From contig JAAYVG010000050.1 of the NCBI GenBank assembly GCA_012517285.1, positions 1 through 37,735 of the forward strand: a stretch of DNA of 37,735 nucleotides, read 5' to 3'. Shown piece after piece: positions 837 to 33,387 of the stretch; position 1 is the stretch's first letter, and the number at the start of each line of letters is the position of its first letter. This DNA is from Elusimicrobiota bacterium. Lineage in GTDB: Bacteria; Elusimicrobiota; Elusimicrobia; Elusimicrobiales; UBA9959. Position numbers and translations under genes: made by a program. Below the pieces are notes generated by a model. That model did not search any database and had not been told where the DNA came from. It saw only the letters and a program-made list of their open reading frames with translations.

Positions 837-1706
837 TTACAGTTTGTTTTCCTTATAAAAGTTTACTATAAAATTCCATGCATCTTCTGCTTTATCAACA
901 TAAGTAAATATTTTAAGATCGTTCTCGCTTATATATTTCATATCGGCCATAAGCTTGAAATTTATTAATTTTTTCCAGTATTCTTTGCCAAGCAAAATTA
1001 CAGGCATCTTTCTCTTTTTGTGTGTTTGAATGAGAGTAAGAACCTCAAAAAGCTCATCCATTGTTCCAAACCCTCCAGGAAAAGCCACCATAGCCTTAGC
1101 TCTCATAACAAAATGCATTTTTCTTATTGCAAAATAATGGAACCTAAAACAAAGATCCTCTGATATATAAGGATTTGGATCCTGTTCCATAGGAAGGGTT
1201 ATGTTGAGTCCTATGCTCGTCTCACCTTCATCCCATGCCCCTCTGTTAGCCCCTTCCATTACTCCTGGGCCACCACCTGTAACTATAACAACCTTTTCTC
1301 CGTTTATTCTGTTCTTTGATACAAGTCTCGCAAACTCTCTTGCTTCATCATAATACTTTGATGATTTCAAAAGTATTTTTGCTGTATTAAGGTTTTCCCT
1401 TAAAGATTTATCATCTGGATTTGATTTAATATCCTGTTCAATCTTTTCAATCCTTTTCAATATCTCACCCTTCTCAGCAGTCCTTGCACTACCAAAACAC
1501 ACTATTGTGTGATTTATCTTTTGCCTTCTAAGAGCATTTTCTGCTTTTAAAAGTTCAAGCTGCAACCTTATTGGCCTCAGATCATTACTTCTAAGAAAGT
1601 CTAAATCCTCATATGCTTTTCTGTAAGATCTTGAATTTTTAAGCTTTTCTACCATCCTGTCCTTTTCCTGCTCGGACATTTCTTTTTTAAAATTTTCCTT
1701 GCTCAT
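837..1706 (-). CDS. LOG-family (TIGR00730-type) Rossmann-fold nucleotide hydrolase, long form
   Basis: The 289-aa product has the two signatures of the LOG / 'lysine decarboxylase-like' family: GGGPGVMEGANRG near residue 145 and PGGFGTMDELFEVLT near 210. Family members hydrolyse nucleoside 5'-monophosphates, and some release cytokinin-type bases. The Arg and Glu of the PGGxGTxxE active site are present. An N-terminal helical extension of about 70 residues, rich in Lys, Glu and Arg, makes it longer than the 180-200 aa short forms. The start has a GAGG sequence a few bases upstream. It sits 7 bases after dxs and 5 bases before the Memo-like gene in one minus-strand run. The physiological substrate cannot be told from sequence. 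Confidence 0.85.
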   Translation of the reverse strand: MSKENFKKEMSEQEKDRMVEKLKNSRSYRKAYEDLDFLRSNDLRPIRLQLELLKAENALRRQKINHTIVCFGSARTAEKGEILKRIEKIEQDIKSNPDDKSLRENLNTAKILLKSSKYYDEAREFARLVSKNRINGEKVVIVTGGGPGVMEGANRGAWDEGETSIGLNITLPMEQDPNPYISEDLCFRFHYFAIRKMHFVMRAKAMVAFPGGFGTMDELFEVLTLIQTHKKRKMPVILLGKEYWKKLINFKLMADMKYISENDLKIFTYVDKAEDAWNFIVNFYKENKL

Positions 1707-1713
1707 TGTTACC

Positions 1714-3573: not shown

Positions 3574-4478
3574 CTGTCTCTCCCTATTAAAAGATATGCC
3601 ATTTCTTTCATAAGCTTTTTATGTTCATCCCTGCCATCTAACATATCAAGTATTTTTAATGATTCAGATAAAAGTTTTTCCTCTAATTCTTTTGATTTTT
3701 CTATTCCATAAAATGAAACGTATGTGAGTTTATTATTTTTTTTATCACTTCCATTCTTTCCAATTTTTTTCTTATCGCCTATGACATCAAGTATGTCATC
3801 AGCTATCTGAAAGGCAAATCCTATTTTTTGAGCAAAATCAGATATGGATCTTAAATCCTTTTCTTTATCCGCTAATATGCACCCTATTTCACAGGCTGCC
3901 ATAATCATATCAGCAGTCTTGTGCTGGTGTATGTAATCGAGCTGCTCAGCTAATTCTTTTTTGCTATTTTTTTTAAGCAATGTTCCTTCTGATACAAGAT
4001 CTATGGTCTGTCCTGATACCATCCCCGAGCTACCCGCTCTTCTGGATAGAATTTCTATCACCATTCCCTTTTTTTCTTCATTGATCTTTTTTGAGCTTGA
4101 AATAATGTGAAAGGCATCAGTCAGAAGTCCATCACCAGCCAAAACTGCTACTCCGTCGCCAAAAACCTTATGGTTGGTAGGCTTTCCTCGTCTCAGATCA
4201 TCATTGTCCATTGCAGGGAGATCATCATGTATTAGTGAGTATGTGTGAACCATTTCTATTGCGGCAGCGGCATCCACTATATCCGTTTTTTTACCAGTGG
4301 ATAAAAATTCATATGTAAGAAACATCAAGGTTGGTCTTATCCTTTTTCCACCGCAGTTAATAGAATAAAGCATAGCATCTTTAATAAGTTTGCATGCTGA
4401 TTCTTTTTTGTTTATATACTCGTTTATTCTCTTGTTTACAAGGGTTTGTGAATCCTGAATATATTCTTCTAACCTCAT
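3570..4478 (-). CDS. ispA: polyprenyl (farnesyl/geranylgeranyl) diphosphate synthase
   Basis: This enzyme elongates allylic diphosphates with isopentenyl diphosphate. The 302-aa product shows the first Asp-rich motif in DDLPAMDNDDLRRGKPTNH near residue 90, the GGKRIRP segment near 43, and the second motif QIADDILDVIGD near 225, all with their aspartates intact. Length and motifs fit short-chain trans-prenyl synthases of the IspA/GGPPS group; chain length cannot be assigned safely. It is the first gene of the minus run with dxs and overlaps it by 4 bases. xseB, often next to this gene pair in other bacteria, is not seen. The start codon lies just downstream of a good -10 box with no room for a Shine-Dalgarno site, suggesting a leaderless message. 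Confidence 0.93.
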   Translation of the reverse strand: MRLEEYIQDSQTLVNKRINEYINKKESACKLIKDAMLYSINCGGKRIRPTLMFLTYEFLSTGKKTDIVDAAAAIEMVHTYSLIHDDLPAMDNDDLRRGKPTNHKVFGDGVAVLAGDGLLTDAFHIISSSKKINEEKKGMVIEILSRRAGSSGMVSGQTIDLVSEGTLLKKNSKKELAEQLDYIHQHKTADMIMAACEIGCILADKEKDLRSISDFAQKIGFAFQIADDILDVIGDKKKIGKNGSDKKNNKLTYVSFYGIEKSKELEEKLLSESLKILDMLDGRDEHKKLMKEMAYLLIGRDR

Positions 4479-5091: not shown

Positions 5092-6414
5092 TTACCTACT
5101 ACTTTTTTTTATCTCAAAAATTTTCTGATCCCCTTCTTTCATAAATGTTACTGTGGATATAGATTTTGATTTTTTAATTATATCCATAGCAACCTTTTCC
5201 ATATCATCTATGTCTTTATCATCATATTCAGAGTTTATGTTAACTGGGATAAAACTTTTTATTCTGTTCCTTGTTACAAACTTCGTTAGTATTGATATGG
5301 AGCTGTGTCCCTTGTGATTGTTTGATTCATAATCCTTATCATTATAGTATGAATCATGGATTAGAACATCAAAGCCTGACGTAAACTTTCCAAACCTTTC
5401 GTTATAATCCTGAAATGCAGTAGATTCTTCCCATATCTCACTATCTGGAGAATAAGCGATTCTAAACCCGTTAATATTCAAAAGATACGTCATCGTTGTA
5501 GTTGGATGGTTTGAATACATTGTTGCCATTTTTATATTGTTTGAAAGTTTATAATTTTCCTCCAAGACTTCATATATATTTATCTTTGCCTTTGGCTTTC
5601 CTGATATAGGTGAAAATGAACTGTAAAGATTTGTTTTAATAACATCCTTGAGAGATCTCTCGGGATCGTTCGGTCCCACTATGTTTATCGTATAGGATGA
5701 GTCAAGCAGAGGTGAGAAATGAGGCAGTCCTATTAAATTATCAAGGTGAAAATGTGTGAGCAAAAGCCATATATTTTTATAAGGTTTTTTTGTTTTTATA
5801 TCATTCCCAACATCATAAAGCCCACTGCCAGCATCACAGATGAGAATATCATCCTTGGTTTCTATAGAAAAACACAGAGTTTGCCTGCCATATTTTGATG
5901 ATGACACTGGGAGTTTTTTCCCAAGTGATCTTATGCCGTAGGCTGTTAGCCTTATCTGGTTCTCGCTAAGATCTGACTTAATATTTCTGATGGATATGTT
6001 TTTTTTAGAAATTACTGGTGGTGGGGGAGGCTTAATCTTTTTTGTATTATCCATTATTTCTTTTATAGCTTTAGAAAATGTTTCTACATTGTATGGCTTT
6101 GCCATAAAGAAATCTGCACCTAACATCATTGCCCTTTGCTTTTCTGATTCATATGATTTCCCTGAAAGTATTACAACCTTTATTCCCTTTGTCTCTGGAT
6201 TTGATTTGAGAGTCTTGCATATTTCCATACCATTTATTCCCGGCATCATTATATCTGTTATGACAAGCCTCGGCATTATCTTTTTTATTTGTTCAACAGC
6301 TTTTGTAGAGTCATCTATCAAAAGCACCTTCCATCCTGCATCCACAAGCAGGTCTTTTGTAAGCTCACCTGTCATTGGGTCATCATCTATGATTACTATA
6401 TCAAAATCTTCCAT
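5092..6414 (-). CDS. response-regulator receiver domain fused to a metallo-beta-lactamase-fold domain
   Basis: The 440-aa product has an N-terminal CheY-like receiver (about residues 1-120): IDDD acidic pocket, phospho-acceptor D54 in ITDIMMPG, and conserved Lys in MAKPYN. A proline-rich linker (KKIKPPPPPVISKK) follows. Residues 150-440 form an MBL-fold hydrolase with THFHLDNLIG near 217, a later SNHPTTT His, LIHDSYYND and HKGHSSI. The sixth position of the canonical HxHxDH is Asn instead of His, which may change the second metal site. The ATG at 6414 is preferred over a TTG at 6426 because a GAGAGG ribosome site lies just before it. Output is probably phosphorylation-controlled hydrolysis of a small molecule; the substrate is unknown. 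No partner kinase is adjacent. Confidence 0.85.
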   Translation of the reverse strand: MEDFDIVIIDDDPMTGELTKDLLVDAGWKVLLIDDSTKAVEQIKKIMPRLVITDIMMPGINGMEICKTLKSNPETKGIKVVILSGKSYESEKQRAMMLGADFFMAKPYNVETFSKAIKEIMDNTKKIKPPPPPVISKKNISIRNIKSDLSENQIRLTAYGIRSLGKKLPVSSSKYGRQTLCFSIETKDDILICDAGSGLYDVGNDIKTKKPYKNIWLLLTHFHLDNLIGLPHFSPLLDSSYTINIVGPNDPERSLKDVIKTNLYSSFSPISGKPKAKINIYEVLEENYKLSNNIKMATMYSNHPTTTMTYLLNINGFRIAYSPDSEIWEESTAFQDYNERFGKFTSGFDVLIHDSYYNDKDYESNNHKGHSSISILTKFVTRNRIKSFIPVNINSEYDDKDIDDMEKVAMDIIKKSKSISTVTFMKEGDQKIFEIKKSSR

Positions 6415-6442
6415 AAAACCTCTCAACCTTATAAGTATATGT

Positions 6443-12906: not shown

Positions 12907-12934
12907 TTAATTAAAATAAAAGTAGTAATGATTG

Positions 12935-13231
12935 ATGGATATTGGAAAAAAGATTAATGATATTAAAGCAATATTAATAAAGGAAATTGACCCAGATATA
13001 ATTATTTTGTTTGGTTCAAGAGCAAATGGAAAATCAAGAAATGGTTCTGATATAGATTTAGCTATTAAAACAAATCAAACAATCAGCTTTAGAAAGGAGA
13101 GAAAGCTAAGGGAAAAATTGGATGAAGCAGGAGGTATTTATTCTATTGATTTAATTTTTACTGATAGAGTTTCGAAAAAATTTCTTAAAAATATTAAAGG
13201 GTATGGAAAGGTGATATATGAAAAAAAATGA
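12935..13231 (+). CDS. MNT-type nucleotidyltransferase (antitoxin of MNT/HEPN pair)
   Basis: The 98-aa protein has the minimal nucleotidyltransferase signature FGSRANGKSRNGSDIDLAI, with the GS motif and the paired aspartates DID, and a third aspartate in SIDLIF. In characterised MNT/HEPN pairs this component transfers AMP to the toxin and blocks it. The ATG at 12935 is preferred; a TTG directly before it is also possible. The downstream HEPN gene overlaps it by 14 bases. The cassette lies between housekeeping genes without visible insertion-sequence ends. Confidence 0.85.
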   Translation: MDIGKKINDIKAILIKEIDPDIIILFGSRANGKSRNGSDIDLAIKTNQTISFRKERKLREKLDEAGGIYSIDLIFTDRVSKKFLKNIKGYGKVIYEKK

Positions 13232-13610
13232 AGTTTTATTAGCGATTGAAAACTTTAAAAAAGCATTTTTATCATTAAAAAAGGGGGCGAAAACTGCCAA
13301 AAATGATCTTGAAAGAGATGGTGTTGTACAAAGATTTGAGTTTAGCTTTGAATTGTTTTGGAAAACATTAAAGATAATATTAGAATTTCATGGCAAAAAT
13401 GCTGATAGTCCAAGAATGGCTATAAAAGAGGCAGTTAGATCAAACTTCCTTGTTGATGACGAGGTATATTTAGATATGCTTGAAGATAGGAATAGGACTT
13501 CTCATATATATGATGAAAGTGTTTCCAAAGAAATATTTGATAGAATAAAAAAATTTTATATACCAGCTTTTGAAGCTTTTTTAAAGAATATAGGCAAGAT
13601 CAGTAATTAG
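13218..13610 (+). CDS. HEPN-superfamily protein (HI0074 / nucleotidyltransferase substrate-binding type)
   Basis: The 130-aa helical protein contains FEFSFELFWKTLKIIL near residue 40 and LDMLEDRNRTSHIYDE near 85, the signature of the HI0074-like group. R91-x4-H96 (RNRTSH) is the RxxxxH motif that forms the RNase site in active HEPN toxins. It pairs with the MNT gene upstream (14-base overlap). The pair may act as a toxin-antitoxin module or a defence module; no other defence genes adjoin it. A degenerate simple-repeat tract follows before the IspH fusion gene. Confidence 0.85.
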   Translation: MKKNEVLLAIENFKKAFLSLKKGAKTAKNDLERDGVVQRFEFSFELFWKTLKIILEFHGKNADSPRMAIKEAVRSNFLVDDEVYLDMLEDRNRTSHIYDESVSKEIFDRIKKFYIPAFEAFLKNIGKISN

Positions 13611-13687: not shown

Positions 13688-15334
13688 ATGAAAATCATAA
13701 TTGCAAAAAATGCAGGATTCTGTCCCGGTGTTAATAACGCTATAAATAAGGTTATAGAACTATCTGAACATTCAACAAAAAAAATATATACATTAGGACA
13801 GTTAATACATAATAATGATGTTATAAAAAATTTAGAGGAAAGAGGAATAGTTGCAGTTAATAGTATAAGCGAGATAAATGATATAAAAACCTCAATACTT
13901 GTTATAAGAGCACACGGGATACCTCCAGAACTTGAAGAGAAGATAAAAGAATCGGGCATTGAATACGTGGATGCGACATGTCCACTTGTTAAAAATGCAC
14001 ATAGGATTATAAAAGAATACTCAGAAAAAGGATATACAACAATAATTCTTGGTGATAAAGAACATGCTGAGGTAATCGGACTTAAAGGTTATGCAGGCGA
14101 TAATTGCTTTGTTATCAGCTCTGTTGAGGAAGCAGAAAAGCTACCTGACATAGAAAAAGCAAACCTTGTTTCTCAAACGACTCAGGAGGAAGAGCTTTTT
14201 GAAAGGGTTGTAAATATTTTAACACCAAAGATAAAAGAATTAATAATTTCTAACACAATATGTACACCAACAAAACTGAGGCAGAAAGAGACAATAGAAT
14301 TTTCAAAGATTGCAGATATTGTTGTTGTTATAGGTGGAAAGCACTCAGCAAACACTCAAAGACTGTATCAGATATGTAAGGATATGTCAAAGGAAGCAGT
14401 TCTTGTGGAAAATGAGAATGATATAACCGATGACCTTTTTAAGGATAAAAATACTGTATTTATAACAGCCGGAGCATCGACGCCGGCTTGGCTCATATCT
14501 GGTGTGGAGAAAAAAATAAGGGGGATTATATACAAAGAAAATATATTTAGAAAATTTTTTAAGTTTATAGTGGCTTCAGGCATATTTACAGGCTTTGCCG
14601 CTCTCGGACTTATATCTGTGGTTTATAAATCATTTAAAACAAGCCCTGATATAAAATTTGCAATATCTCTTTCTCTTGTCCTTATGGCAGCACACATAAT
14701 AAACAGGAGCTCTGAAAAAGAGGCTAATGAGAACAACTTTAGAAAAACAATTTTCTTGAAGTATAACAGAGAGATAAGATATATTGCATATATATCAATC
14801 ATACTCTCCATATTATTATCATTGAACAGTGGAATACTTTACACCATATTAATACTGCTTTTTGCTCTGCCAGCAATGGTATATCGGAAAATTAAAAAAA
14901 GTTTAAAGATCTCAGCCATAAAGGACATATTTATCACACTCGGATGGGTTTATATAATCTGTTTCATACCGGCGATAAGCTTACACAAGCTTAGCTCACC
15001 CATCTTTTACTCAAACATATTGCTTATTTTTACAGCATCGCTTATAAGGAATATATTTATAGGCATACTCCAGAAAAAGAATGATATGATCATAACAAAT
15101 GAATACATATACTTCTGTCTGGGTGAGAAAAGAACATTCAAGCTTCTTTATATTATTTTATTAGTTTTACTCTTTATTTCGATACCTTACTGTAGATATT
15201 TTTCAATACCGATCTTATTCCTTCCAGTTTATTATTTTATAATGATATTTATGATGAAAAAAGGAAAATCTCCTGATATAATACTATCAGAGTTCTTGAT
15301 AGAACTTCCATTTTTTGCTATTATATTAGTCTGA
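13688..15334 (+). CDS. ispH: 4-hydroxy-3-methylbut-2-enyl diphosphate reductase fused to a UbiA-like membrane domain with lost Asp motifs
   Basis: IspH makes IPP and DMAPP in the last MEP step using a [4Fe-4S] cluster. Residues 1-285 are a complete IspH: Cys12 in GFCPGV, Cys98 in DATCPLV, Cys192 in NTICTPTKLRQ, RAHGIPP near 76 and KHSANTQRLYQIC near 220. Ordinary IspH stops near here; this protein continues for about 260 residues with roughly eight hydrophobic segments. Their layout resembles UbiA prenyltransferases, but the first Asp motif position (NDxxDxxxD) reads N339-RSSEKEA-N347 and the second (RDxxDxxxD) reads R454-N-IFIGIL-Q462. The GxKTLPxxxG-type tail survives as IITNEYIYFCLGEKRT. 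So the C-terminal domain is probably a non-catalytic membrane or prenyl-binding module. The UbiA assignment is my inference from pattern. Confidence 0.9.
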   Translation: MKIIIAKNAGFCPGVNNAINKVIELSEHSTKKIYTLGQLIHNNDVIKNLEERGIVAVNSISEINDIKTSILVIRAHGIPPELEEKIKESGIEYVDATCPLVKNAHRIIKEYSEKGYTTIILGDKEHAEVIGLKGYAGDNCFVISSVEEAEKLPDIEKANLVSQTTQEEELFERVVNILTPKIKELIISNTICTPTKLRQKETIEFSKIADIVVVIGGKHSANTQRLYQICKDMSKEAVLVENENDITDDLFKDKNTVFITAGASTPAWLISGVEKKIRGIIYKENIFRKFFKFIVASGIFTGFAALGLISVVYKSFKTSPDIKFAISLSLVLMAAHIINRSSEKEANENNFRKTIFLKYNREIRYIAYISIILSILLSLNSGILYTILILLFALPAMVYRKIKKSLKISAIKDIFITLGWVYIICFIPAISLHKLSSPIFYSNILLIFTASLIRNIFIGILQKKNDMIITNEYIYFCLGEKRTFKLLYIILLVLLFISIPYCRYFSIPILFLPVYYFIMIFMMKKGKSPDIILSEFLIELPFFAIILV

Positions 15335-15465: not shown

Positions 15466-16899
15466 ATGGACAAAACGGTTTTGTTAGCAGTTCTCGTTCC
15501 TGTTATCGGTGCTTTTACAATCCCATTATTTAACAGGATATCCAAGGATCTAAGAAATGTTATGGCTGTGGTCATAGCAGCTTCAACCTTTATATTCAAC
15601 GTAGTACTGATGCAAAATGCCTTTCTGGACGGGATAAGATATGTCGTTTCGTTTCCATTAGGTTTTGATTTCATACTAAAGTTAGATCCTCTATCAGCAT
15701 TTATGGCAACTGTATCATCGCTTATCAGCCTTGTTATAGTTATATATTCTCTTGATTATATATCTCACTATGAGAATCAGACAGAATACTACACAATGGT
15801 CATATTTTTTATGGGCTCAATGATGGGGCTTGTTTATTCTGACAATCTTATATGGATGTACACATTCTGGGAACTGACAGGCTTTGCATCATGGAGGCTT
15901 GTTGGATTTTTTAGGGGCGATAAAGAAATAGCAAAGGCTAACAAGACGGTGCTTGTTACATTTTTTGGTGCAGTTTTGATGCTTATAGGAATAATAGATA
16001 TCTATATGACCCAAGGAACTGTTGTAATATCCGAACTCAAAGCAAAGGAGATAACATTTCTTCCAGCAACACTCATCCTTTGCGGAATATTTTCAAAATC
16101 TGCTATACTACCATTTTCGACATGGCTACCAGACGCTGGTGTTGCCCCATCAACTGTTACCTCACTGCTCCATGCCGCAGTGCTTGTCAAAATAGGAACG
16201 TTCGTATATGCAAAGCTTTTTGGAACAATTTTTATAGTTCCTGAAAGCTTTAGCTATATGGTCCTTATAATAACTGGCATCACTGCCCTTGTCGCAGGAG
16301 GAGCAGCTCTTATAGAAACAGATATGAAAAGGATCATTGCATACTCCACCATAAGTCAGCTTTCATTCATATTCTTGGGGCTTGCAAGCGGCTCAAAATT
16401 AGCATTTGCCGGAGCACTTGTTTACATACTGATGCACAGCATAGCAAAGGGCTCCCTATTCCTCTGTGCAGGTATAGTTGAGCAAAAGACCCATACCAAG
16501 GATATAACGAAGATGGGTGGACTTGTAAAATCAATGCCACTGACAGCATTAGCATTTGCTCTATCAGCATTCTCTGTTATGGGACTGCCACCGTTTGGCG
16601 GTTTTTTTGGTAAGTTTTTTGTGTTCAAGGGTGCTATAGAAACAAATGATATCATCGTTTCAATACTCTTCTTTATAGGTGCAATCCTCACAATGCTCTA
16701 CCTTTCAAGACTGTTTTATAAAATATTCCTTGGAAGCGAAAAACCAAATATGCCCCGCGAGGGTTCATCAACAATGGTTGCATCAGTCCTCTTCCTTGCG
16801 TTCCTGGGGCTTGTGCTTGGTATATTGATAACATATCCATTTGACTATGCAAGCATAACAACCGAAACAATGTATATGATGGGGGTAAACATACAATGA
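15466..16899 (+). CDS. antiporter-like subunit 1 (NuoL/M, HyfB type) of energy-converting hydrogenase
   Basis: The 477-aa polytopic protein of the proton-conducting transporter family has about 14 hydrophobic segments. It contains LDPLSAFMATVSSLI near residue 68, the glutamate of FWELTGFASWRLVGFF near 130, and the buried lysine of FSKSAILPFSTWLPDAG near 207, followed by VTSLLHAAVLVKIG. These Glu and Lys residues carry protons in complex I antiporter-like subunits. The protein lacks the long C-terminal lateral helix of NuoL. It is the first gene of the eleven-gene operon, with an AGAGG ribosome site, and its stop overlaps the next start (ATGA). The 130-bp gap upstream has no clear promoter. 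Confidence 0.9.
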   Translation: MDKTVLLAVLVPVIGAFTIPLFNRISKDLRNVMAVVIAASTFIFNVVLMQNAFLDGIRYVVSFPLGFDFILKLDPLSAFMATVSSLISLVIVIYSLDYISHYENQTEYYTMVIFFMGSMMGLVYSDNLIWMYTFWELTGFASWRLVGFFRGDKEIAKANKTVLVTFFGAVLMLIGIIDIYMTQGTVVISELKAKEITFLPATLILCGIFSKSAILPFSTWLPDAGVAPSTVTSLLHAAVLVKIGTFVYAKLFGTIFIVPESFSYMVLIITGITALVAGGAALIETDMKRIIAYSTISQLSFIFLGLASGSKLAFAGALVYILMHSIAKGSLFLCAGIVEQKTHTKDITKMGGLVKSMPLTALAFALSAFSVMGLPPFGGFFGKFFVFKGAIETNDIIVSILFFIGAILTMLYLSRLFYKIFLGSEKPNMPREGSSTMVASVLFLAFLGLVLGILITYPFDYASITTETMYMMGVNIQ

Positions 16900-18779
16900 A
16901 TACAAACACTAATATAAGCAATTTAATTTTGATTCCTATACTTATACCTTTTATCTCCGCTTTTCTGATACTTTTGATTTCAGAAAAGACAAAATATTTA
17001 AAAGAGGTTCTTTCCATTGCTGTAGCTCTTCTGTGTTTTATTGCTTCAATAACTCTTTTGAGGCTTGTAGGGGAAAATCCTATAATCTATCAGATTCCAT
17101 GGCTTGGATATAGAGAGATGATGGCATTCAGAGTTGATCACCTCTCAGCATTTCTTCTCTTTGCTGTAAGTATGTTTTCAACGCTTATATCAATCTATGC
17201 TATATCAGTAAAGAACAAGGGATATTCAAAGATTTTTTACTTTCTTTTACTTTTGACTCAGTCAGCTGCTGCTGGTTCAGTGTTAAGCGATAATCTTATT
17301 GCAATGCTCTTTTTCTGGGAGTCAATGGTTGTGTTCCTTTATGTATATATCTATATATCAGGTGAAGGCTATGCAGTAAGAAAGGCGGCTCTAAAAACAT
17401 TTTTAATAAACGGTATAAGTGATATAGCTATGATGATAGGCATAGTTATTGTTGGCTATATATCTGACACATATCTTATGAGCAGTATATCATCAAACAA
17501 ACTTATATTAAGTGGTTGGGGAACAATAGCATACATAATGCTTCTTATAGGTGCACTGACAAAAGCTGGGGCATTCCCATTTCATACTTGGATACCTGAT
17601 GCAGCATTAAACTCAAATGCAGCTTTTATGGCATACATCCCTGCGGCAATAGATAAGCTACTCGGTATATACTTTTTGGCCAGAATCTCAATTTATCTCT
17701 ACAGCCTTAACACAACAATGCAAGTAATACTTATGGCAATAGGGGCTATAACAATACTTGTTGCAGTTATGATGGCACTGGTTCAGAGTGATTATAAGAG
17801 GCTGCTCTCATACCACGCTGTAAGCCAAACTGGATATATGATACTCGGAATAGGAACATTAAACCCTATAGGAATAGCAGGTGGACTTTTTCATATGATA
17901 AACCATGCGAGCTACAAATCCTGTTTGTTCATGACATCAGGTGCTGTTGAAAGAGAAACAGGAACAAATGATATCTCAAAATTGGGTGGACTTTTCTCAA
18001 GGATGCCAGTAACTGCTATATGCTTTATAGTGGCGGCGGCTTCCATATCTGGGATAGCACCTTTCAACGGATTTTTTTCAAAGGAGCTTGTTTATAAGGG
18101 AACATTAGCAAGCGGATGGACACTTTTCTTTTATGCTGCTGAGTTAGGCTCAATCCTTACACTCGCATCATTTCTTAAATTAGGTCACAGCGTGTTCTTT
18201 GGAAGTTGCCCAGAGAATTTAAAAGATACAAAAGAAGCACCGTATTCAATGATAATACCAATGATTCTGCTTGCAGCTATATGCATAGTCTTTGGATTTG
18301 GTGCAGATATTCCTGTATCAAAATTTATAGAGCCATCGCTTTCATCATTAGGAGTTGTAGTAGGAAATATTGAGTTAGCAGGTTTCCATACCGATAGTCT
18401 TTTCATAATATTTCTTGTTGTCGTGATAATAGCAGTAACCAACCATATAATAGGATTCAGGCTTTCAGGAAAGGCATATAAATCATCCGACCATATACAT
18501 CACGCACCTGTTTTAAAGGAAACATATGCTATGGCCGATAAAGGATACTTTGATATATACGAGATATCAAGATATATATTTGCATATTTTGCAGGAATAA
18601 TGTTTAAAGTGGACAGGTTCTTTGATAAGCTGATTGATGACATACCGAGTGCAATAACACGATGGGCATCTGAGCAACTTTCAAGGCTCCAGAGTGCAAG
18701 CTACAGAGTATCTATGTTTTTTATATTCCTGTTCATTGCGATCTATCTATTATACCTTGGAGGAATAAAATGGCAATAG
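16896..18779 (+). CDS. antiporter-like subunit 2 (NuoL type, with C-terminal extension)
   Basis: The 627-aa protein is the longest of the three antiporter-like subunits. FRVDHLSAFLLFAVSMFSTL lies near residue 76, FWESMVVFLYVYIYISG near 138 with its Glu, and GALTKAGAFPFHTWIPDAA near 218 with its Lys. Beyond residue 520 there is an extra region with HHAPVLKETYAMADKGYFDI and a long helical tail ending in a final hydrophobic segment, which resembles the NuoL-type C-terminal lateral helix. This tail would clamp the other membrane subunits in complex I. The gene overlaps its neighbours on both sides (4 and 10 bases), so tight co-translation is expected. Confidence 0.9.
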   Translation: MNTNTNISNLILIPILIPFISAFLILLISEKTKYLKEVLSIAVALLCFIASITLLRLVGENPIIYQIPWLGYREMMAFRVDHLSAFLLFAVSMFSTLISIYAISVKNKGYSKIFYFLLLLTQSAAAGSVLSDNLIAMLFFWESMVVFLYVYIYISGEGYAVRKAALKTFLINGISDIAMMIGIVIVGYISDTYLMSSISSNKLILSGWGTIAYIMLLIGALTKAGAFPFHTWIPDAALNSNAAFMAYIPAAIDKLLGIYFLARISIYLYSLNTTMQVILMAIGAITILVAVMMALVQSDYKRLLSYHAVSQTGYMILGIGTLNPIGIAGGLFHMINHASYKSCLFMTSGAVERETGTNDISKLGGLFSRMPVTAICFIVAAASISGIAPFNGFFSKELVYKGTLASGWTLFFYAAELGSILTLASFLKLGHSVFFGSCPENLKDTKEAPYSMIIPMILLAAICIVFGFGADIPVSKFIEPSLSSLGVVVGNIELAGFHTDSLFIIFLVVVIIAVTNHIIGFRLSGKAYKSSDHIHHAPVLKETYAMADKGYFDIYEISRYIFAYFAGIMFKVDRFFDKLIDDIPSAITRWASEQLSRLQSASYRVSMFFIFLFIAIYLLYLGGIKWQ

Positions 18780-20170
18780 ATTTAATTTCATACAGTCTTG
18801 TGCCGCTTTTTGCAGCACTCATAATCCCGTTCATACCAAGAAAGCATAGAAGGATAACGGAGATCATAGCAAACATAACCCTTTTAAGTGGAATAATAAA
18901 CTTAGGTTATGTGATAATCTATTATCTAGTACTGAATGATTATACATCATACACATCGGATGCGTTTACGACACTGATGCTTTTTACAATCTATCTTGTT
19001 GGTATGGCTATAACCTTTTTCTCAACATACTATGAGGTAGAAAAGGATACAAATTTTTCATCATATTATTCGCTAATCCTCGTATCAGTATCTGCAATGT
19101 GCTCACTTGTTATGTCAAGAGATTTTTTTACGCTTTATATTTTTATGGAGGCATTGAGTGTTTGCTCATTTGCGTTGATAACATCAGACAGCAAGACATT
19201 TTCAATTGAGGCGGCAATAAAGTATTTTTTTCTTACATTTCCTGCATCAGTGCTGATAATATTTGGAATATCGCTTCTGATGATAAACTATGGAACCTTT
19301 GACTTTGATACTATAAAATTTACAAGTATGAACTTTCTTACATTTGTATCACTCTCATTCATAATACTTGGTTTTTTAATAAAGGCTGGAATTGTTCCAT
19401 TTCATTTCTGGACTCCTGATGTATATGAGGGATCATACTCACCAGTATCAGCATATATGGCAGGAATAGTTACAAAGGTTGGTGGGATATATGCAATAAT
19501 AAAAATAGTTATGCTTTTATCAAGCTATGGTTTTGGCAGCAATCTTTCAAAGCTTCTTCTCTTCACAGGCTTTTTATCAGTTTTTGTTGGAGCTATCGCA
19601 GCAACTGTTCAAAAGAATATGAAGAGGATGCTTGCATACTCAAGCATAAGCCAGATGGGATATATAATACTTGCAGCGGCAACATTTTCTCCGATTGGAA
19701 TAATAGCAGCGGTGTTCCATTTAATAAACCATGCAACATTTAAAACAGTTCTATTTTTGAACTCAGCCTGTGTTGAAAAAAGCACGGGGACAACCAATAT
19801 GGATGAGCTAAAAGGGCTTGAGCACAGGATGCCGTGGACAAGCTGGACATCAATCATCGCACTTTTTTCAACCGCTGGTCTTCCACCACTCTCAGGATTC
19901 TGGAGCAAGCTTTTAATAATACTTGCTCTCTGGCAGAGCGGTCATATATTTTATGCTGTGGCTGCACTTATAGCAAGCGTCTTTACATTAGCCTACTTCA
20001 CAATAATGCAAAAAAAGGTATTCTTCGGAAAACTTCCTGAAAAGTTTAATGATATAAAAGAAGCTAAGTATCAGCTCCTGATACCTGTTGTTGTTATCAG
20101 CCTTATAATAATTTTTACAGGTGTATTTTTTAACAGAGTATTTCCATACTTTGAAAGGATACTCAGCTAA
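18770..20170 (+). CDS. antiporter-like subunit 3 (NuoN type)
   Basis: The 466-aa polytopic protein shows FMEALSVCSFALITS near residue 126 with the conserved Glu and GFLIKAGIVPFHFWTPDVYE near 205 with the conserved Lys, followed by SPVSAYMAGIVTKVGG. The DVYEG sequence after the Lys helix is characteristic of NuoN/M-like members. QKNMKRMLAYSSISQMGY lies near 284 and LINHATFKTVLF near 320. With the two preceding genes it gives the complex three antiporter-type modules, as in complex I. It overlaps the preceding gene by 10 bases and is followed 11 bases later by the NuoJ-like gene, with a GGAGG ribosome site between. Confidence 0.9.
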   Translation: MAIDLISYSLVPLFAALIIPFIPRKHRRITEIIANITLLSGIINLGYVIIYYLVLNDYTSYTSDAFTTLMLFTIYLVGMAITFFSTYYEVEKDTNFSSYYSLILVSVSAMCSLVMSRDFFTLYIFMEALSVCSFALITSDSKTFSIEAAIKYFFLTFPASVLIIFGISLLMINYGTFDFDTIKFTSMNFLTFVSLSFIILGFLIKAGIVPFHFWTPDVYEGSYSPVSAYMAGIVTKVGGIYAIIKIVMLLSSYGFGSNLSKLLLFTGFLSVFVGAIAATVQKNMKRMLAYSSISQMGYIILAAATFSPIGIIAAVFHLINHATFKTVLFLNSACVEKSTGTTNMDELKGLEHRMPWTSWTSIIALFSTAGLPPLSGFWSKLLIILALWQSGHIFYAVAALIASVFTLAYFTIMQKKVFFGKLPEKFNDIKEAKYQLLIPVVVISLIIIFTGVFFNRVFPYFERILS

Positions 20171-20181
20171 CGGAGGAATAG

Positions 20182-20676
20182 ATGATATTTTATCTCTTGA
20201 TTTATTTCATAATAGTTGTGGCTGCGGCTATGGCCATTATGTCAAAAAAGCTGTTGAACTCAGCAGTAATGCTTGCACTCTTGAGCATTGGTATATCAAT
20301 ACTTCTTTTTGCATACAACGCACCATGGGCAGCAGTATTTGAGCTCTCAGTCTGTGCCGGACTTATAACAGTTCTTTTTATAAGTGCTGTCAGCCTTGTT
20401 AAAAATGATGAGGATGCACTCAAGGAGAAAAGAGTAAAGTACACAGTATTTCCTCTTATGCTTGTCGGCTTTGCAGTTATAGCATCAATATTTGTACCAG
20501 AATACTTTGCAAATCTCTTTCAGTTTGCAAGCTTTAATCCATCAAACAATCCACCACTCGGTGATATGATCTGGCTTTACAGAGGTTTTGATATAATAGG
20601 CCAGATAACACTTCTTGCTGCAAGCATATTTGTTATAAAGCATATATTTACCAAGGAGACTAAGAATGAACATTAA
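20182..20676 (+). CDS. NuoJ-like membrane subunit
   Basis: The 164-aa protein has about five hydrophobic segments. A segment near residue 53, FELSVCAGLITVLFISAVSL, matches the conserved Glu-Gly region of NuoJ and of the related DUF4040/MbhD-type subunits. The C-terminal YRGFDIIGQITLLAASIFVI resembles the MbhE/MrpA-type end segment (R-x-D-x-x-G). It thus appears to combine the two short MbhD- and MbhE-like segments in one chain, the state found in complex I J subunits. The gene overlaps the NuoK-like start by 11 bases. Confidence 0.8.
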   Translation: MIFYLLIYFIIVVAAAMAIMSKKLLNSAVMLALLSIGISILLFAYNAPWAAVFELSVCAGLITVLFISAVSLVKNDEDALKEKRVKYTVFPLMLVGFAVIASIFVPEYFANLFQFASFNPSNNPPLGDMIWLYRGFDIIGQITLLAASIFVIKHIFTKETKNEH

Positions 20677-20974
20677 TTTTCCTCTTGACTGGTTTTTTAT
20701 AGCAATTTTATTTTTCACAGGTGCATACTGTATGATAGTCTCAAGAAACATAATAAAATTGCTCATAGGCTTTGAGATAATATCAAAATCAGCAACAATA
20801 GCTATGATAACAGCAGGACAGGCAACAAACAATATGGCACTTGCCCAGAGTGTTATTATAGTGATGATAATGGTTGAGGCCATAGTCATAGCAAGTGGCC
20901 TTGCCCTTGTTGTTAAGTCTTACAGATTGAATGGCAGCATAGACATAAAAAAACTTATGAACTTAAAGGGGTAA
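20666..20974 (+). CDS. NuoK-like membrane subunit
   Basis: The 102-aa protein has three hydrophobic helices. The two glutamates that mark NuoK are at KLLIGFEIISKS near residue 37 and VMIMVEAIVIASGLALV near 74; in complex I these pass protons in the membrane arm's central axis. Length equals that of typical K subunits. It sits between the J-like and A-like genes, overlapping the first by 11 bases and lying 3 bases before the second. MrpC/MbhG-type subunits are homologous, but the operon order and the paired Glu favour the K label. Confidence 0.85.
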   Translation: MNINFPLDWFFIAILFFTGAYCMIVSRNIIKLLIGFEIISKSATIAMITAGQATNNMALAQSVIIVMIMVEAIVIASGLALVVKSYRLNGSIDIKKLMNLKG

Positions 20975-20977
20975 AAT

Positions 20978-21304
20978 ATGGAAATTTTATTGTATCCTCC
21001 TTTTGCTTTTATAATCGCTCTGATAATCCTTTTTATATTTGCAAAGATAATAAAGGGGTTTGAGCCAAGGGTTCAAAAGAATCCTGAGACATCAAAAACA
21101 TACGGCTGTGGTGAGGATGTTGAGCCTCAAAAGACGACCCCTTCATATGAGGAGTTCTATCCATACGCAATATTCTTTACAGTTTTGCATGTTGTTGCTC
21201 TGATGCTTATGACACTTGCTTTTGCAACTCAGGTTCCGTTTGTTATTCCGCTGACATATGTTCTTATAGTCATCATTATACTATCAATACTTTTTATAGG
21301 ATGA
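20978..21304 (+). CDS. NuoA-like membrane subunit
   Basis: The 108-aa protein has three hydrophobic segments separated by a long loop after the first, the layout of NuoA/ND3. The loop carries TYGCGEDVEP, matching the YECG loop whose Cys marks ND3. The usual FDVE stretch in the second helix reads LHVV here. A-type subunits are standard in complex I and Fpo and are not part of the standard Ech, CooMKLXUH, Hyc or Hyf hydrogenase sets, so its presence beside a true hydrogenase large subunit is notable. It has a GGGG ribosome site and lies between the K-like and B-like genes. Confidence 0.75.
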   Translation: MEILLYPPFAFIIALIILFIFAKIIKGFEPRVQKNPETSKTYGCGEDVEPQKTTPSYEEFYPYAIFFTVLHVVALMLMTLAFATQVPFVIPLTYVLIVIIILSILFIG

Positions 21305-21308
21305 ATTT

Positions 21309-21749
21309 ATGAAATTAAAAGATAAAATAATACTCTGGTCAAGGGTCAAATCGCCATGGATAATACATTTCAACACTGGCGCATGCAATGGTTGTGATAT
21401 AGAAATAGTTGATGCGCTCACACCGAGATATGATGTAGAAAGATTTGGTATGCTTTTAAAGGGAACGCCGAGACATGCTGATGTTATGGTGGTAAGTGGC
21501 CCACTCACAAGACAGCAGGCAAAGAGATTTAAAAGGATATATGACCAAATACCAAATCCAAAGTTTGTTTTAGCTGTTGGAACATGTGCATGCTCTGGCG
21601 GAGTTTTTGATGGATGCTACGGAGTAGTGGGCGGGATTGATAAGGTCATACCTGTATCAGCTTACATACCGGGATGTCCCGCAAGGCCTGAGGCTTTGCT
21701 TGATGCAGTGGTTAAATTGATAACACAGCTTGAAAAGTCGGCGAAATAG
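21309..21749 (+). CDS. group 4 [NiFe] hydrogenase small subunit / NuoB-like
   Basis: The 146-aa protein binds the [4Fe-4S] cluster nearest the active site. Its ligands are Cys26 and Cys29 in GACNGCDIE, Cys93 in GTCACSGG and Cys123 in IPGCPARPE. The CxxC spacing (CNGC) is the hydrogenase form seen in HycG, HyfI, CooL and EchC; respiratory NuoB has two adjacent cysteines instead. The PGCPARPE motif is shared across both groups. It is a short small subunit without the extra cluster domain of group 1 hydrogenases. The start lies 4 bases after the A-like stop, and no internal signal peptide is present, as expected for a cytoplasm-facing enzyme. Confidence 0.92.
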   Translation: MKLKDKIILWSRVKSPWIIHFNTGACNGCDIEIVDALTPRYDVERFGMLLKGTPRHADVMVVSGPLTRQQAKRFKRIYDQIPNPKFVLAVGTCACSGGVFDGCYGVVGGIDKVIPVSAYIPGCPARPEALLDAVVKLITQLEKSAK

Positions 21750-21889
21750 TGATCAGTGCTCGGTGCGGGCATGCCTGACAGTAGGCAGGATTAGTGGAAG
21801 GGAAATACATTATTAACTGATCACCATCCACTGACCACTGTTTTGTTTTGCTGATCACTGACCACTGTCCACTGACCACTAATAGAGAG
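21750..21889. repeat. degenerate CACTGACC-type repeat tract inside the hydrogenase operon
   Basis: Between the small subunit and the C-like gene lie repeated variants of GATCACTGACCACTG and CCACTGACCACT, plus a CGGGCATGCCTGACAGTAGGCAGG patch. These read on the complement as repeated GTGGTCAGTG units. The reading frame of the following gene continues back through it, but the ribosome site GAGAGG at about 21885 fixes the true start after the tract. Confidence 0.6.
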
Positions 21890-21895
21890 GTAAAT

Positions 21896-22390
21896 ATGAG
21901 CGAAGAAACAATAAAAGAAGAAGAACTTGTAAAAAACTTGAAGGAAAAATTTGGTGATGCAATTGAAAATGTTATCATACCCAGAAAGAACAGGGTATGG
22001 ATGGATATCAATCAAAACATTGCACTTGATTTAATGAAATACTTAAAGGAACACGGTTATTATCATCTTTCAACAATAACAGGTTTTGATGAGGGGGAAA
22101 AATTAGGAGCAATATATCATATAACAGATCATAAAACTATTCTCAACATCAAGATAAGAACATCGAAAGAAAATCCAGTGTTAAAAAGTGTTTTATCAGT
22201 TTATCCTGTTGCAACCTCATATGAAAGAGAACTTTTTGATCTTTTCGGTATAAAAGTAGAAGGTTTGCCAGAGGGGAGAAATTATCCTCTCCCTGAAGGG
22301 TTTCCAGAGGGTGTTCATCCGCTCAGAAAGGAAGTAAAATTGGATGAGTTAAACAAGATGTTAAATGAGAAGTCAGTTAAGGAGGACTAA
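21896..22390 (+). CDS. NuoC / EchD-like hydrogenase subunit
   Basis: The 164-aa soluble protein matches the 30-kDa subunit family of complex I and group 4 hydrogenases. The characteristic region is SVYPVATSYERELFDLFGIK near residue 100, followed by PEGRNYPLPEGFPEGVHPLRK. This subunit bridges the large and small subunits and binds no cofactor. The ATG at 21896 with its GAGAGG ribosome site is chosen over an earlier in-frame ATG at 21848, because the extra 16 codons fall in a simple-repeat tract. The stop overlaps the start of the large subunit gene (TAATG), indicating coupled translation. It is separate from the D-like subunit and not fused as in HycE/HyfG. Confidence 0.88.
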   Translation: MSEETIKEEELVKNLKEKFGDAIENVIIPRKNRVWMDINQNIALDLMKYLKEHGYYHLSTITGFDEGEKLGAIYHITDHKTILNIKIRTSKENPVLKSVLSVYPVATSYERELFDLFGIKVEGLPEGRNYPLPEGFPEGVHPLRKEVKLDELNKMLNEKSVKED

Positions 22391-23577
22391 TGTCAAAAAT
22401 GCAAATACCCCTTGGACCACAGCATCCAGCCTTAAAAGAACCAGAAAATTTTATGCTCGTTCTTGACGGTGAACAGATAGTTGATGCAACCGTCAATTTA
22501 GGTTACAATCACAGAGGAATTGAAAAAGCCGCTGAAAACAGAAATTATATTCAGGATATTTATCTTATAGAAAGGGTTTGTGGCATATGTTCACACTCAC
22601 ATGTAAGCTGCTATATAGGAGCAGTTGAGGAGATAGCAAAGGTTGAAGTTCCAGCAATAGCAAAAGCACTACGAACTATTGTGGCCGAGCTTGAAAGGAT
22701 TCACTCACATCTGCTCTGGCTTGGAGTGGCAGCATTTGAATTAGGTTATGATACACTTTTTATGTATACATGGAGGGACAGAGAACAGGTTCTTGATTGC
22801 CTTGAATTATTATCAGGCAACAGAGTCCATTATGGAATGAACACAATAGGTGGTGTTAGACGTGACATAACAAAAGAGCAGGTTGATGAAATATCAAAAA
22901 AGATTAAGTATTTAAAGGAAAGAACATCATATTATGTCAACGTTGTAACAGAGGAACCAACATTTTTAGCAAGGACACAAAACGTTGGGAAACTTCCAAA
23001 GGATGTTGCCCTTGAACTGAATGCTGTTGGACCGACAGCGAGAGCAAGTGGTGTTGACATTGATGTAAGAAGGGATGAGCCATATTTTATATATGATCAG
23101 TTGGATTGGAAGGTTATAACATATCACACCTGTGATGTGTTTGGAAGAGCAGTTGTAAGAGTTTTAGAAACAATAGAATCATACAAGATGATAGAACAGA
23201 TATTAAAGGCAATACCTGAGGGACCTATATCAGTTAAGGTTCCATGGAAGATTCCTGCTGGCGAAGCAGTTTTTAGATATGAGGCACCGAGGGGAGAGGA
23301 TATTCATTATGTTAAATCAAATGGAACAGAATATCCTGAGAGAGTCAAGGTCAGAGCCCCAACACTCTCTAACTTCCAGTCGCTTCCTTACTGTCTTAAA
23401 CAGGGATATTTAGCAGATGCCGTAATAACCATAGCTGCAATAGACCCGTGTATGAGCTGCACTGACAGGGCTGTTGTCTATGATATAAACAAGGGCGAAA
23501 GAAAAACCTTTGATCAGGAAGAACTCAGGAAGTATTCAATTGAGTTTTACAAGAAAAAAGGAATAAGTTTTAAATAA
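22390..23577 (+). CDS. group 4 [NiFe] hydrogenase large subunit (NuoD homologue with all Ni ligands)
   Basis: The 395-aa catalytic subunit contains HRGIEK near residue 41, the L1 motif ERVCGICSHSH (Cys64, Cys67) and the L2 motif DPCMSCTDR (Cys354, Cys357). All four cysteines that bind the Ni-Fe centre are present, so it should interconvert protons and H2; complex I NuoD lacks them. The rest follows the NuoD/EchE pattern (PLGPQHPALKEPE start, RIHSHLLWLGVAAFELG near 94, NAVGPTARASGVDIDVRRD near 215). A tail of 38 residues follows Cys357; whether it is removed by a maturation protease cannot be judged. No hyp maturation genes are in the window. Electron partner is probably ferredoxin, by analogy with Ech. 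Confidence 0.95.
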   Translation: MSKMQIPLGPQHPALKEPENFMLVLDGEQIVDATVNLGYNHRGIEKAAENRNYIQDIYLIERVCGICSHSHVSCYIGAVEEIAKVEVPAIAKALRTIVAELERIHSHLLWLGVAAFELGYDTLFMYTWRDREQVLDCLELLSGNRVHYGMNTIGGVRRDITKEQVDEISKKIKYLKERTSYYVNVVTEEPTFLARTQNVGKLPKDVALELNAVGPTARASGVDIDVRRDEPYFIYDQLDWKVITYHTCDVFGRAVVRVLETIESYKMIEQILKAIPEGPISVKVPWKIPAGEAVFRYEAPRGEDIHYVKSNGTEYPERVKVRAPTLSNFQSLPYCLKQGYLADAVITIAAIDPCMSCTDRAVVYDINKGERKTFDQEELRKYSIEFYKKKGISFK

Positions 23578-23581
23578 AAAC

Positions 23582-23822
23582 AAGGTTCACTGAAAAACTC
23601 TATTTGAGCAATAAAGCAATGATTTTCGTTATGAGGCGAGGAAGAATGAGCGAGCATACTACATAGTAGTCTGTAAGCGAGTTCTGACGAAGCCGTAGTT
23701 CTTTATTGCCAAAAGAAAGATAAAAAGTGCATGGTTTTTTTTGCAATATTATCTTAAAAATCGTACACTTTTAGAATAATAATCTACTATTTATCTTTCG
23801 TTAGAGTTTTCCAGTGAACCTT
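23582..23822. mobile_element. 241-bp MITE-like element with 20-bp terminal inverted repeats
   Basis: Positions 23582-23601 and 23803-23822 are inverted copies of AAGGTTCACTGAAAAACTCT matching at 19 of 20 positions. The interior has no gene but has nested dyads: GCAATAAAG near 23607 pairs with CTTTATTGC near 23702, the palindrome ACTACATAGTAGT near 23659, and AAAGATAAAAAGTG near 23716 pairs with the CACTTTTAG / TTTATCTTTC region near 23766-23800. It separates the large-subunit gene from the H-like gene. No transposase is encoded. A target duplication is not clear. Confidence 0.7.
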
Positions 23823-23838
23823 AATAAGGAGCGCAAGT

Positions 23839-24780
23839 ATGGATGCAATAATACCTTTACTTTATATAGCTGTATTTCCGGGATTTATATTTCTTGGAGT
23901 ATATGCTCTGCTTATGCAATGGGTTGATAGAAAGCTTTCTGCTGTGATGCAGAACAGGGTAGGGCCGCCGATTTATCAGCCATTGGCTGATTTTATAAAA
24001 CTTATATCTAAAGAGGTTGTCATACCTGAAAATGCTGATGTGATCTTATTTAAATCACTTCCTTATGTAGCTATGGCAAGCATAATAACAAGCATATTCA
24101 TGATCCCGATATGGGACGGTAAGGCTCTCGTATCCTTTGAGGGTGACATAATGGTTGTTATGTATCTGCTTATCATACCGACAGTAACATTCTTTTTAGC
24201 AGGATGGTCATCAACAAGCCCTTACTCTACAATAGGATCTATGAGGGTTATGACCCAGCTTTTTGGATACGAAGTTCCTCTTTTTATGTCGTTTGCAGGA
24301 TGTGCAATACTTGCAGGCAGTTGGTCAATAAGTGGCATAGCTGCTTATTTTTCTGCCAATCCATGGTTTATTCTTCTAAACCTTCCAGGCTTTATAGCTG
24401 CACTTTTAGCAGCGGAGGGTAAGTTAGAAAGGGTTCCGTTTGATACTCCACATGCCAAAAATGAGCTTGTTGGTGGGCAGTTCACAGAATACTCTGGAAG
24501 GCTTTTGGCAATATTCCTCCTTTCAATAGATATGGAGATGATCGTTCTTGCTGCATTTATAAGTGCAGTATTTTTAGGAGGACTTGGAAGTTTTACAGGA
24601 CTTGCAGGTTTCATTCTGTTTATAATAAAAACTTTTTTTGTCTGTTTCATACTCATACTTTTTAAAGCATTAATGGCAAGAGTAAGAGTGGATCAGATGC
24701 TAAAATTTTCATGGAAATGGCTTGTTCCTGTATCTGCCTTGCAGATACTTATAGACATACTTTTAAAAGTAAATATTTAA
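23839..24780 (+). CDS. NuoH / EchB-like membrane anchor subunit
   Basis: The 313-aa protein has eight hydrophobic segments. Family motifs are WVDRKLSAVMQNRVGPP near residue 28, PLADFIKLISKE near 47 and the quinone-cavity/acid cluster AEGKLERVPFDTPHAKNELV near 194, followed by EYSGRLLAIF. This subunit connects the hydrogenase module to the ion-translocating arm. In quinone-reducing enzymes it also forms the quinone channel; here a hydrogenase active site makes a quinone role less likely. It lies 16 bases after the right end of the MITE-like element, with a GGAGCG ribosome site. The next gene, a ferredoxin-like subunit, follows directly. Confidence 0.93.
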   Translation: MDAIIPLLYIAVFPGFIFLGVYALLMQWVDRKLSAVMQNRVGPPIYQPLADFIKLISKEVVIPENADVILFKSLPYVAMASIITSIFMIPIWDGKALVSFEGDIMVVMYLLIIPTVTFFLAGWSSTSPYSTIGSMRVMTQLFGYEVPLFMSFAGCAILAGSWSISGIAAYFSANPWFILLNLPGFIAALLAAEGKLERVPFDTPHAKNELVGGQFTEYSGRLLAIFLLSIDMEMIVLAAFISAVFLGGLGSFTGLAGFILFIIKTFFVCFILILFKALMARVRVDQMLKFSWKWLVPVSALQILIDILLKVNI

Positions 24781-24790
24781 TGAGGTGAAT

Positions 24791-25189
24791 ATGAAAAAAC
24801 CGCTTAGACTTTTTCCTGAAGCAATGAAAAATTTAACAAAAAAGGCTGCTACATCAAAGTATCCATTTGAAAAAGCAAAAACGTATCCGGGATTTAGGGC
24901 AAGAATAGTTTTTGAGTCTGAAAAATGCATAGGATGCAAGATGTGTATGAGAGTATGCCCTGCCGGAGCAATTGAAATAGTTTTAAGTGCAGAACAGCCT
25001 GCACCTCAAACAGCTGCTGATGGAAGCCAGATACCACAAAAGAAAAAGTTTGACTGCATAATGAATTTAGATAGATGTATATACTGTGCCCAGTGTGTAG
25101 ATATATGTCCTAAAAAAGCATTAGCATCAAGTCCTGATTTTGAACTAGCCCAATTTGACCGAAAAAAACTAAAACTTCATTACACTTAG
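24791..25189 (+). CDS. NuoI-like 2x[4Fe-4S] electron-transfer subunit
   Basis: The 132-aa protein contains two ferredoxin-type cluster motifs: CIGCKMCMRVCPAGAIEI near residue 47 and CIYCAQCVDICPKKAL near 94. It would carry electrons from a soluble donor such as ferredoxin to the cluster of the small subunit. The linker between the two motifs is longer than usual and contains AEQPAPQTAADGSQIPQKKK, a flexible insert. The ATG at 24791 with a GAGGTG ribosome site is chosen over a GTG two codons earlier. It is the last gene of the hydrogenase operon. No NuoE, F or G homologues follow. Confidence 0.92.
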   Translation: MKKPLRLFPEAMKNLTKKAATSKYPFEKAKTYPGFRARIVFESEKCIGCKMCMRVCPAGAIEIVLSAEQPAPQTAADGSQIPQKKKFDCIMNLDRCIYCAQCVDICPKKALASSPDFELAQFDRKKLKLHYT

Positions 25190-27177: not shown

Positions 27178-27178
27178 A

Positions 27179-29695: not shown

Positions 29696-29750
29696 TTGGT
29701 ATAATAAAAAATCATCGGCTCGTCCGATCTGTCTGGGGGTGGAAAAGCTT

Positions 29751-30043: not shown

Positions 30044-30158
30044 TAGATTGTAAAAAGTCCAATATGTATAGATATTCTACAGAATATTATGGAGGGAATT
30101 TGTTTGCAAAACCTATTTGGTATTATTACGATACATACAATTGAGTTTGGACTAATCT

Positions 30159-30863: not shown

Positions 30864-30876
30864 AGGAGGACGATTT

Positions 30877-31176: not shown

Positions 31177-31295
31177 GTATGTTTGCGAAATTTATACTAC
31201 AGAATGGCCTAATTCTTTACCAGGACTTAAATAAGTCAGAATTAAAATATTTAATAACAGAAAAAACATAATATTGCTTTTGAGAAGGATAAATT

Positions 31296-31730: not shown

Positions 31731-31767
31731 ACTTAATATGATAGATTTAAAAATTTTCCAAAAGCAA

Positions 31768-33039: not shown

Positions 33040-33116
33040 GTTTAGAGGTCTTTTAAGTTGTTAATCACGTTTGAAATAGAAAAGAGAATAATTAAATAAA
33101 TGTTTCTTTCGTAATT

Positions 33117-33152: not shown

Positions 33153-33153
33153 T

Positions 33154-33386: not shown

Positions 33387-33387
33387 A

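What the first reader, a model, noticed from the sequence alone, without database searches (positions are those of the whole stretch)
13688..15334. IspH fused to a UbiA-like membrane domain that has lost its Asp motifs
A full IspH with its three cluster cysteines is followed by about 260 residues of membrane protein. The residues at the expected UbiA Asp-motif positions are N-RSSEKEA-N and R-N-IFIGIL-Q, so all metal-binding Asp are gone while spacing and the LGEKRT-type tail remain. A pseudo-prenyltransferase tied to the enzyme that makes IPP/DMAPP may tether the MEP end point to the membrane, or bind prenyl substrates and feed back on flux. dxs and a prenyl synthase are in the same window.
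Basis: partly seen in the sequence, partly recalled or inferred. Interest (0 to 1): 0.78.

Follow-up and report, generated by a model that had tools for sequence, protein, structure and literature searches.

The report
IspH fused to divergent UbiA domain
The last enzyme of the MEP isoprenoid pathway is joined in one protein to a membrane domain with the fold of prenyl-transferring enzymes; such fusions have been known since 2015, but in this bacterial lineage the membrane half has an altered yet strongly conserved active-site pocket whose job nobody has tested.

Summary
The fusion is real. Window 13688-15334 encodes a complete IspH (residues 1-279) followed by a nine-helix domain of about 265 residues. 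It is not a frameshift or assembly error: one open frame carries both parts in 67 of 199 genomes of the phylum, nearly all in one order. The C-terminal domain has the UbiA fold (for a close homologue, the 16 best PDB matches are all UbiA proteins), although the window copy itself matches no Pfam UbiA model. The fusion type is already published (IspH-UbiA, Rao et al. 2015, sulfate reducers). The claim that all metal-binding Asp are gone is overstated: motif I keeps N339 and E343, the N-x3-E form seen in CtaB-type UbiA proteins of the phylum; motif II keeps D466, invariant in 47/47 fusions; the UbiA-signature Tyr (Y399) is kept. Truly lost are the D76 and D198 equivalents. The domain is under purifying selection (dN/dS about 0.07-0.11) but was lost cleanly at least five times while IspH stayed. 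I favour a membrane module that still binds prenyl diphosphate next to IspH; whether it transfers, senses or only tethers is unresolved. New variant of a known kind; interest moderate.

The parts
13688..15334 (+). IspH-UbiA fusion ORF, 548 aa
   Evidence: one open frame; full-length relatives without internal stops; C-terminal domain in 67 of 199 genomes of the phylum
13688..14524 (+). IspH (HMBPP reductase) domain, residues 1-279; cluster Cys12, Cys98, Cys192
   Evidence: PF02401 E=1.2e-88; TIGR00216 283.7 bits, over cut-off; Cys invariant in 36 relatives
14540..15331 (+). UbiA-fold membrane domain, residues ~285-548, nine transmembrane helices
   Evidence: AF2 pLDDT 84.6, and 88.1 for a consensus-like homologue; Foldseek top hits UbiA 4od4/4tq4; Pfam UbiA in 13/36 relatives, best E=1.2e-6
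14702..14728 (+). Motif I equivalent, residues 339-347 N-RSS-E-KEA-N; N339 and E343 stand at the AfUbiA N68 and D72 positions
14882..14884 (+). Y399, equivalent of the UbiA-signature Tyr (AfUbiA Y139); Tyr in 46/47 fusions
   Evidence: PMC4106721
14921..14947 (+). Family-specific K412-D413 ... G419-W420 at the start of helix 5
   Evidence: K 46/47, D 44/47, G and W 47/47
15047..15085 (+). Motif II equivalent, R454 to D466; Q462 stands for D198, D466 for D202; R454 and D466 invariant

Best explanation
This is a membrane-anchored IspH. It belongs to the known IspH-UbiA fusion type, here a divergent version spread through one order of (probably) Elusimicrobiota. IspH sits on the cytosolic side and makes IPP/DMAPP. 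The UbiA-fold domain holds it at the membrane and keeps a cytosol-facing pocket that includes N339, E343, Y399, K412, R454 and D466. That pocket most likely still binds a prenyl diphosphate, through a motif I metal site and a reduced motif II. The bound prenyl diphosphate could be the donor for an unknown prenyl transfer or a signal that sets IspH activity. Shown: the fusion, the fold (by prediction), the conservation, purifying selection and repeated loss. Inferred: the cytosolic orientation of the pocket, metal and prenyl-diphosphate binding, and coupling to IspH. Not shown: any catalysis.
For: Fold: the 16 best PDB matches of the homologue model are all UbiA-family proteins, best E=5.6e-5, TM 0.65-0.69; the window model puts the same family on top. 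Pocket: N339 45/47, E343 36/47, Y399 46/47, K412 46/47, R454 47/47, D466 47/47; 15 of the 30 most conserved positions lie at predicted cytosolic helix ends against 2 at the outer ends. Charge: 17 K/R in predicted cytosolic segments against 5 in outer ones. Constraint: C-terminal dN/dS about 0.07-0.11 in five close pairs. Literature: in AfUbiA the N68 and D72 alanine mutants lose GPP binding, while D198A and D202A weaken it 45- and 21-fold (PMC4106721).
Against: Motif II lacks the D198 equivalent in every relative, and the equivalents of both D198 and D202 are needed for activity in E. coli MenA (PMC4106721). The AfUbiA diphosphate ligand R22 has no equivalent that I could see. The window copy also deviates at conserved sites (G470->T, K476->F, P409->S) and its loop between helices 4 and 5 is shortened. 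The mean conservation difference between cytosolic and outer ends is not significant (Mann-Whitney p=0.06). At least five lineages live without the domain.
Confidence: 0.55

Rival explanations
1. Active but divergent prenyltransferase: the domain transfers a prenyl chain to an unknown acceptor and IspH feeds it (the proposal of Rao et al. 2015). This and the sensor reading below are the two sub-cases of the best explanation, so confidences overlap.
For: N-x3-E motif I as in CtaB-type UbiA proteins of the phylum; Y399 and D466 kept; purifying selection; in genus g4 stand-alone IspH is commoner in genomes with a futalosine cluster and its own UbiA (MqnC+ 5 solo/3 fused; MqnC- 2 solo/18 fused; Fisher p=0.009, not corrected for phylogeny).
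Against: The D198 equivalent is never Asp. No strong quinone pathway marker (MqnC, MenD) was found in the window's genome or in G045, and G045 has no other UbiA hit, so no acceptor is known. IPP/DMAPP, the products of IspH, are not the usual long-chain donors.
Confidence: 0.35
2. Non-catalytic sensor: the domain binds a prenyl diphosphate and regulates IspH, comparable in logic to UBIAD1 controlling HMG-CoA reductase.
For: Altered but invariant pocket; physical link to the isoprenoid-supplying enzyme; UBIAD1/HMGCR precedent with GGPP-induced release (PMC8641950); the UBIAD1 chain of that complex is among the UbiA structural matches.
Against: No direct evidence for ligand binding or for an effect on IspH; UBIAD1 acts through degradation and as a separate protein.
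Confidence: 0.3
3. Plain membrane anchor left over from a dead prenyltransferase; the pocket is decaying.
For: Partial loss of Asp ligands; repeated clean loss of the domain; the window copy has lost several family-conserved residues.
Against: Invariant polar and charged residues and low dN/dS across the family; an anchor alone would not be expected to keep N, Y, K, R and D at pocket positions.
Confidence: 0.25
4. Frameshift, chimera or assembly artefact.
For: None found.
Against: Same architecture, without internal stops, in genomes of two families of one order plus two genomes of other families.
Confidence: 0.01

Closest known systems
IspH-UbiA fusions of Desulfobacterales (Rao et al. 2015, PMC4746011)
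   Same: IspH at the N-terminus, UbiA-like nine-helix domain at the C-terminus; function of the UbiA part unknown.
   Different: Rao et al. report two DXXXD motifs in the sulfate-reducer proteins; here neither is intact. The lineage differs. Their sequences could not be reached, so common origin was not tested.
UbiA superfamily of intramembrane prenyltransferases (AfUbiA, ApUbiA)
   Same: Fold, Asn of motif I, signature Tyr, second Asp of motif II.
   Different: D72 replaced mostly by Glu, D76 and D198 lost, new invariant K-D, G-W and R; only weak Pfam UbiA scores, below the curated cut-off in the genomes scanned.
IspH-RPS1 fusions of Firmicutes and others
   Same: IspH with a C-terminal partner domain.
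   Different: The partner is ribosomal protein S1 repeats, not a membrane domain.
UBIAD1 bound to HMG-CoA reductase
   Same: A UbiA-fold protein coupled to an isoprenoid-pathway enzyme and answering to a prenyl diphosphate (analogy in logic only).
   Different: Separate eukaryotic proteins, mevalonate pathway, control by degradation.

Membership tests
IspH (HMBPP reductase) | Full LytB/IspH domain | tested here: met
   PF02401 E=1.2e-88, profile 1-266 of 267; TIGR00216 over cut-off
IspH (HMBPP reductase) | Three cluster cysteines | tested here: met
   C12, C98, C192 invariant
UbiA superfamily | Nine-helix UbiA fold | tested here: met
   predicted models and Foldseek
UbiA superfamily | Sequence match to the Pfam UbiA model | tested here: inconclusive
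   none for the window copy; 13/36 relatives, best E=1.2e-6; fusion matches below the curated cut-off in the genomes scanned
UbiA superfamily | Motif I NxxxDxxxD | tested here: inconclusive
   N-x3-E kept, as in CtaB-type proteins, but the following x3-D is lost
UbiA superfamily | Motif II DxxxD | tested here: not met
   only the second Asp (D466) kept
UbiA superfamily | Signature Tyr on TM4 | tested here: met
   Y399, 46/47 Tyr
UbiA superfamily | Mg2+-dependent prenyl transfer | not testable with these tools
   needs an assay
IspH-UbiA fusion (Rao 2015) | IspH N-terminal, UbiA-like C-terminal in one chain | tested here: met
IspH-UbiA fusion (Rao 2015) | Two DXXXD motifs (reported for the sulfate-reducer proteins) | tested here: not met
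   motif columns of 47 fusions

The most novel reading that the evidence does not exclude
A bacterial isoprenoid feedback module: a UbiA-fold domain that no longer transfers prenyl groups but senses prenyl diphosphates in the membrane and tunes the IspH fused to it, a bacterial counterpart in logic to UBIAD1-HMGCR.
Probability: 0.2. Interest if true: 0.8.

Novelty: new variant of a known kind. Interest (0 to 1): 0.42.

Why it matters
The role of IspH-UbiA fusions has been open since 2015. This lineage is a natural experiment: the domain kept a conserved but altered pocket, persists in genomes with no recognised quinone pathway and no other UbiA protein (for example G045), and was lost several times. 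That argues against a simple quinone prenyltransferase role and makes tether, sensor and enzyme models testable.

Tried and rejected
Profile-profile comparison with eight local UbiA proteins and a home-made UbiA HMM gave nothing; the sequences are too divergent, so the fold carries the assignment. Plasmid and viral collections hold no fusion. The one genome-contig scan returned only Firmicutes IspH, so the Desulfobacterales fusions could not be compared. A PDB sequence search with the C-terminal alignment found nothing relevant. I considered a link to complex I because the flanking operon looks like nuo, but its large subunit carries hydrogenase cysteine motifs and the fusion's neighbours differ between genera. 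An IDI-2 (IPP isomerase) link was not supported: found in only one of 33 genomes.

Full report
What is there. Window 13688-15334 (+) is one 548-residue ORF. Residues 1-279 are IspH (PF02401 E=1.2e-88; TIGR00216 283.7 bits against a cut-off of 187.85). The cluster cysteines C12, C98 and C192 are invariant in 36 relatives. Residues from about 285 on form a membrane domain.

It is not an artefact. Full-length relatives without internal stops occur in the sister genome (64% identity) and across two families of the order. A search with the C-terminal alignment found it in 67 of 199 genomes of the phylum: nearly all in one order, plus one genome in each of two other families of the class. Apart from hits cut by contig ends it always shares the open frame with IspH. 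G045, a single contig of 1,643,562 bases, has the length I remember for Elusimicrobium minutum Pei191, so the phylum is probably Elusimicrobiota; the tools gave no names and I could not verify this.

The fold is UbiA. The window sequence alone matches no Pfam UbiA model, but 13 of 36 relatives do, best E=1.2e-6. AlphaFold2 gave pLDDT 84.6 for the window domain and 88.1 for a consensus-like homologue. Foldseek put ApUbiA on top in both cases: E=2.8e-3, TM 0.66 and E=5.6e-5, TM 0.65-0.69. In the second search the first 16 matches are all UbiA proteins.

The Asp motifs. Huang et al. 2014 (PMC4106721) showed in AfUbiA that N68, D72, D198 and D202 coordinate Mg2+, that D76 does not bind it directly, and that Y139 is the most conserved residue of the family. 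An unsupervised alignment with UbiA proteins of the same phylum puts N339, E343, N347 and Y399 on N68, D72, D76 and Y139. For motif II that alignment differs by two columns; I use the shared D-x3-G spacing, which puts Q462 and D466 on D198 and D202. This register is an inference. Counts over 47 fusions: residue 339 N 45, H 2; residue 343 E 36, D 1, others 10; residue 347 variable; residue 399 Y 46, F 1; residue 462 never acidic; residue 466 D 47. CtaB-type UbiA proteins of the phylum have Glu at the D72 position, so E343 need not mean loss of metal binding.

Conservation and selection. K412, D413, G419, W420, P428, R454, D466 and F542 are invariant or nearly so. Fifteen of the top 30 positions lie at predicted cytosolic helix ends and two at outer ends, but the mean difference is not significant (p=0.06). 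K/R counts, 17 inside against 5 outside, fit the topology. In five close pairs dN/dS is about 0.07-0.11 for the C-terminal domain and about 0.02-0.09 for IspH; the window pair itself is near saturation at synonymous sites. The window copy has left the family consensus at S409, T470 and F476 and has a shortened loop after Y399, so its own pocket may be less functional than that of relatives.

History. A tree of 79 IspH domains needs seven changes between fused and unfused; one is a mislabelled Firmicutes protein with a long non-UbiA tail (IspH-S1 type by length, inferred), leaving one gain and five losses as the simplest account. The unfused proteins of the order end 4-13 residues after the IspH domain. 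G116 carries both an ordinary IspH and the fusion, which points to horizontal transfer.

Physiology. No strong MqnC or MenD match was found in the window's genome or in G045, and G045 has no UbiA hit other than the fusion. A general role in quinone synthesis is therefore unlikely. The window's genome does have a separate MenA-like protein beside a polyprenyl synthase. In genus g4, genomes with a futalosine cluster tend to lack the fused domain (5 of 8 against 2 of 20; p=0.009), but these genomes are related and three have both.

Known background. Rao et al. 2015 (PMC4746011) described 47 IspH-UbiA fusions in sulfate reducers with two DXXXD motifs, failed to express them in full, and proposed membrane localisation and local substrate supply. 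In the held library I found no later paper on their function. UBIAD1, which answers to GGPP and controls HMG-CoA reductase (PMC8641950), is the nearest functional analogy for a sensor.

Verdict. A real, conserved, already known type of fusion in a lineage that paper does not name in its text, with a divergent rather than dead pocket. The mechanism is unresolved between divergent enzyme, sensor and anchor.

Noticed in passing
15466-25189: Operon that models name nuo/Mrp/Fpo; its large subunit (22390-23577) has CGICSHSH and DPCMSC motifs, so it is more likely a group 4 membrane-bound [NiFe] hydrogenase than complex I.
   Followed up: partly
12932-13610: MNT nucleotidyltransferase and HEPN-like (PF08780) pair, a likely toxin-antitoxin, directly upstream of the fusion; not seen upstream of it in the sister genome G001.
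   Followed up: partly
25309-35311: Probable defence island: DNA methylase, ResIII/helicase protein and a GmrSD-type restriction endonuclease.
   Followed up: partly
5092-6426: Response regulator receiver domain fused to a metallo-beta-lactamase/RNase Z-like domain.
   Followed up: no
837-4478: dxs, an FPP/GGPP-type synthase and a TIGR00730 (LOG-like) protein in one minus-strand cluster.
   Followed up: no
L085, L137 (genome G116): One genome carries both an ordinary IspH and the IspH-UbiA fusion, suggesting transfer of the fusion between families.
   Followed up: partly
L099, L105, L106 (genomes G022, G015, G034): Canonical UbiA gene next to MqnC and a second MqnC-like gene in genomes whose IspH has lost the fused domain.
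   Followed up: partly
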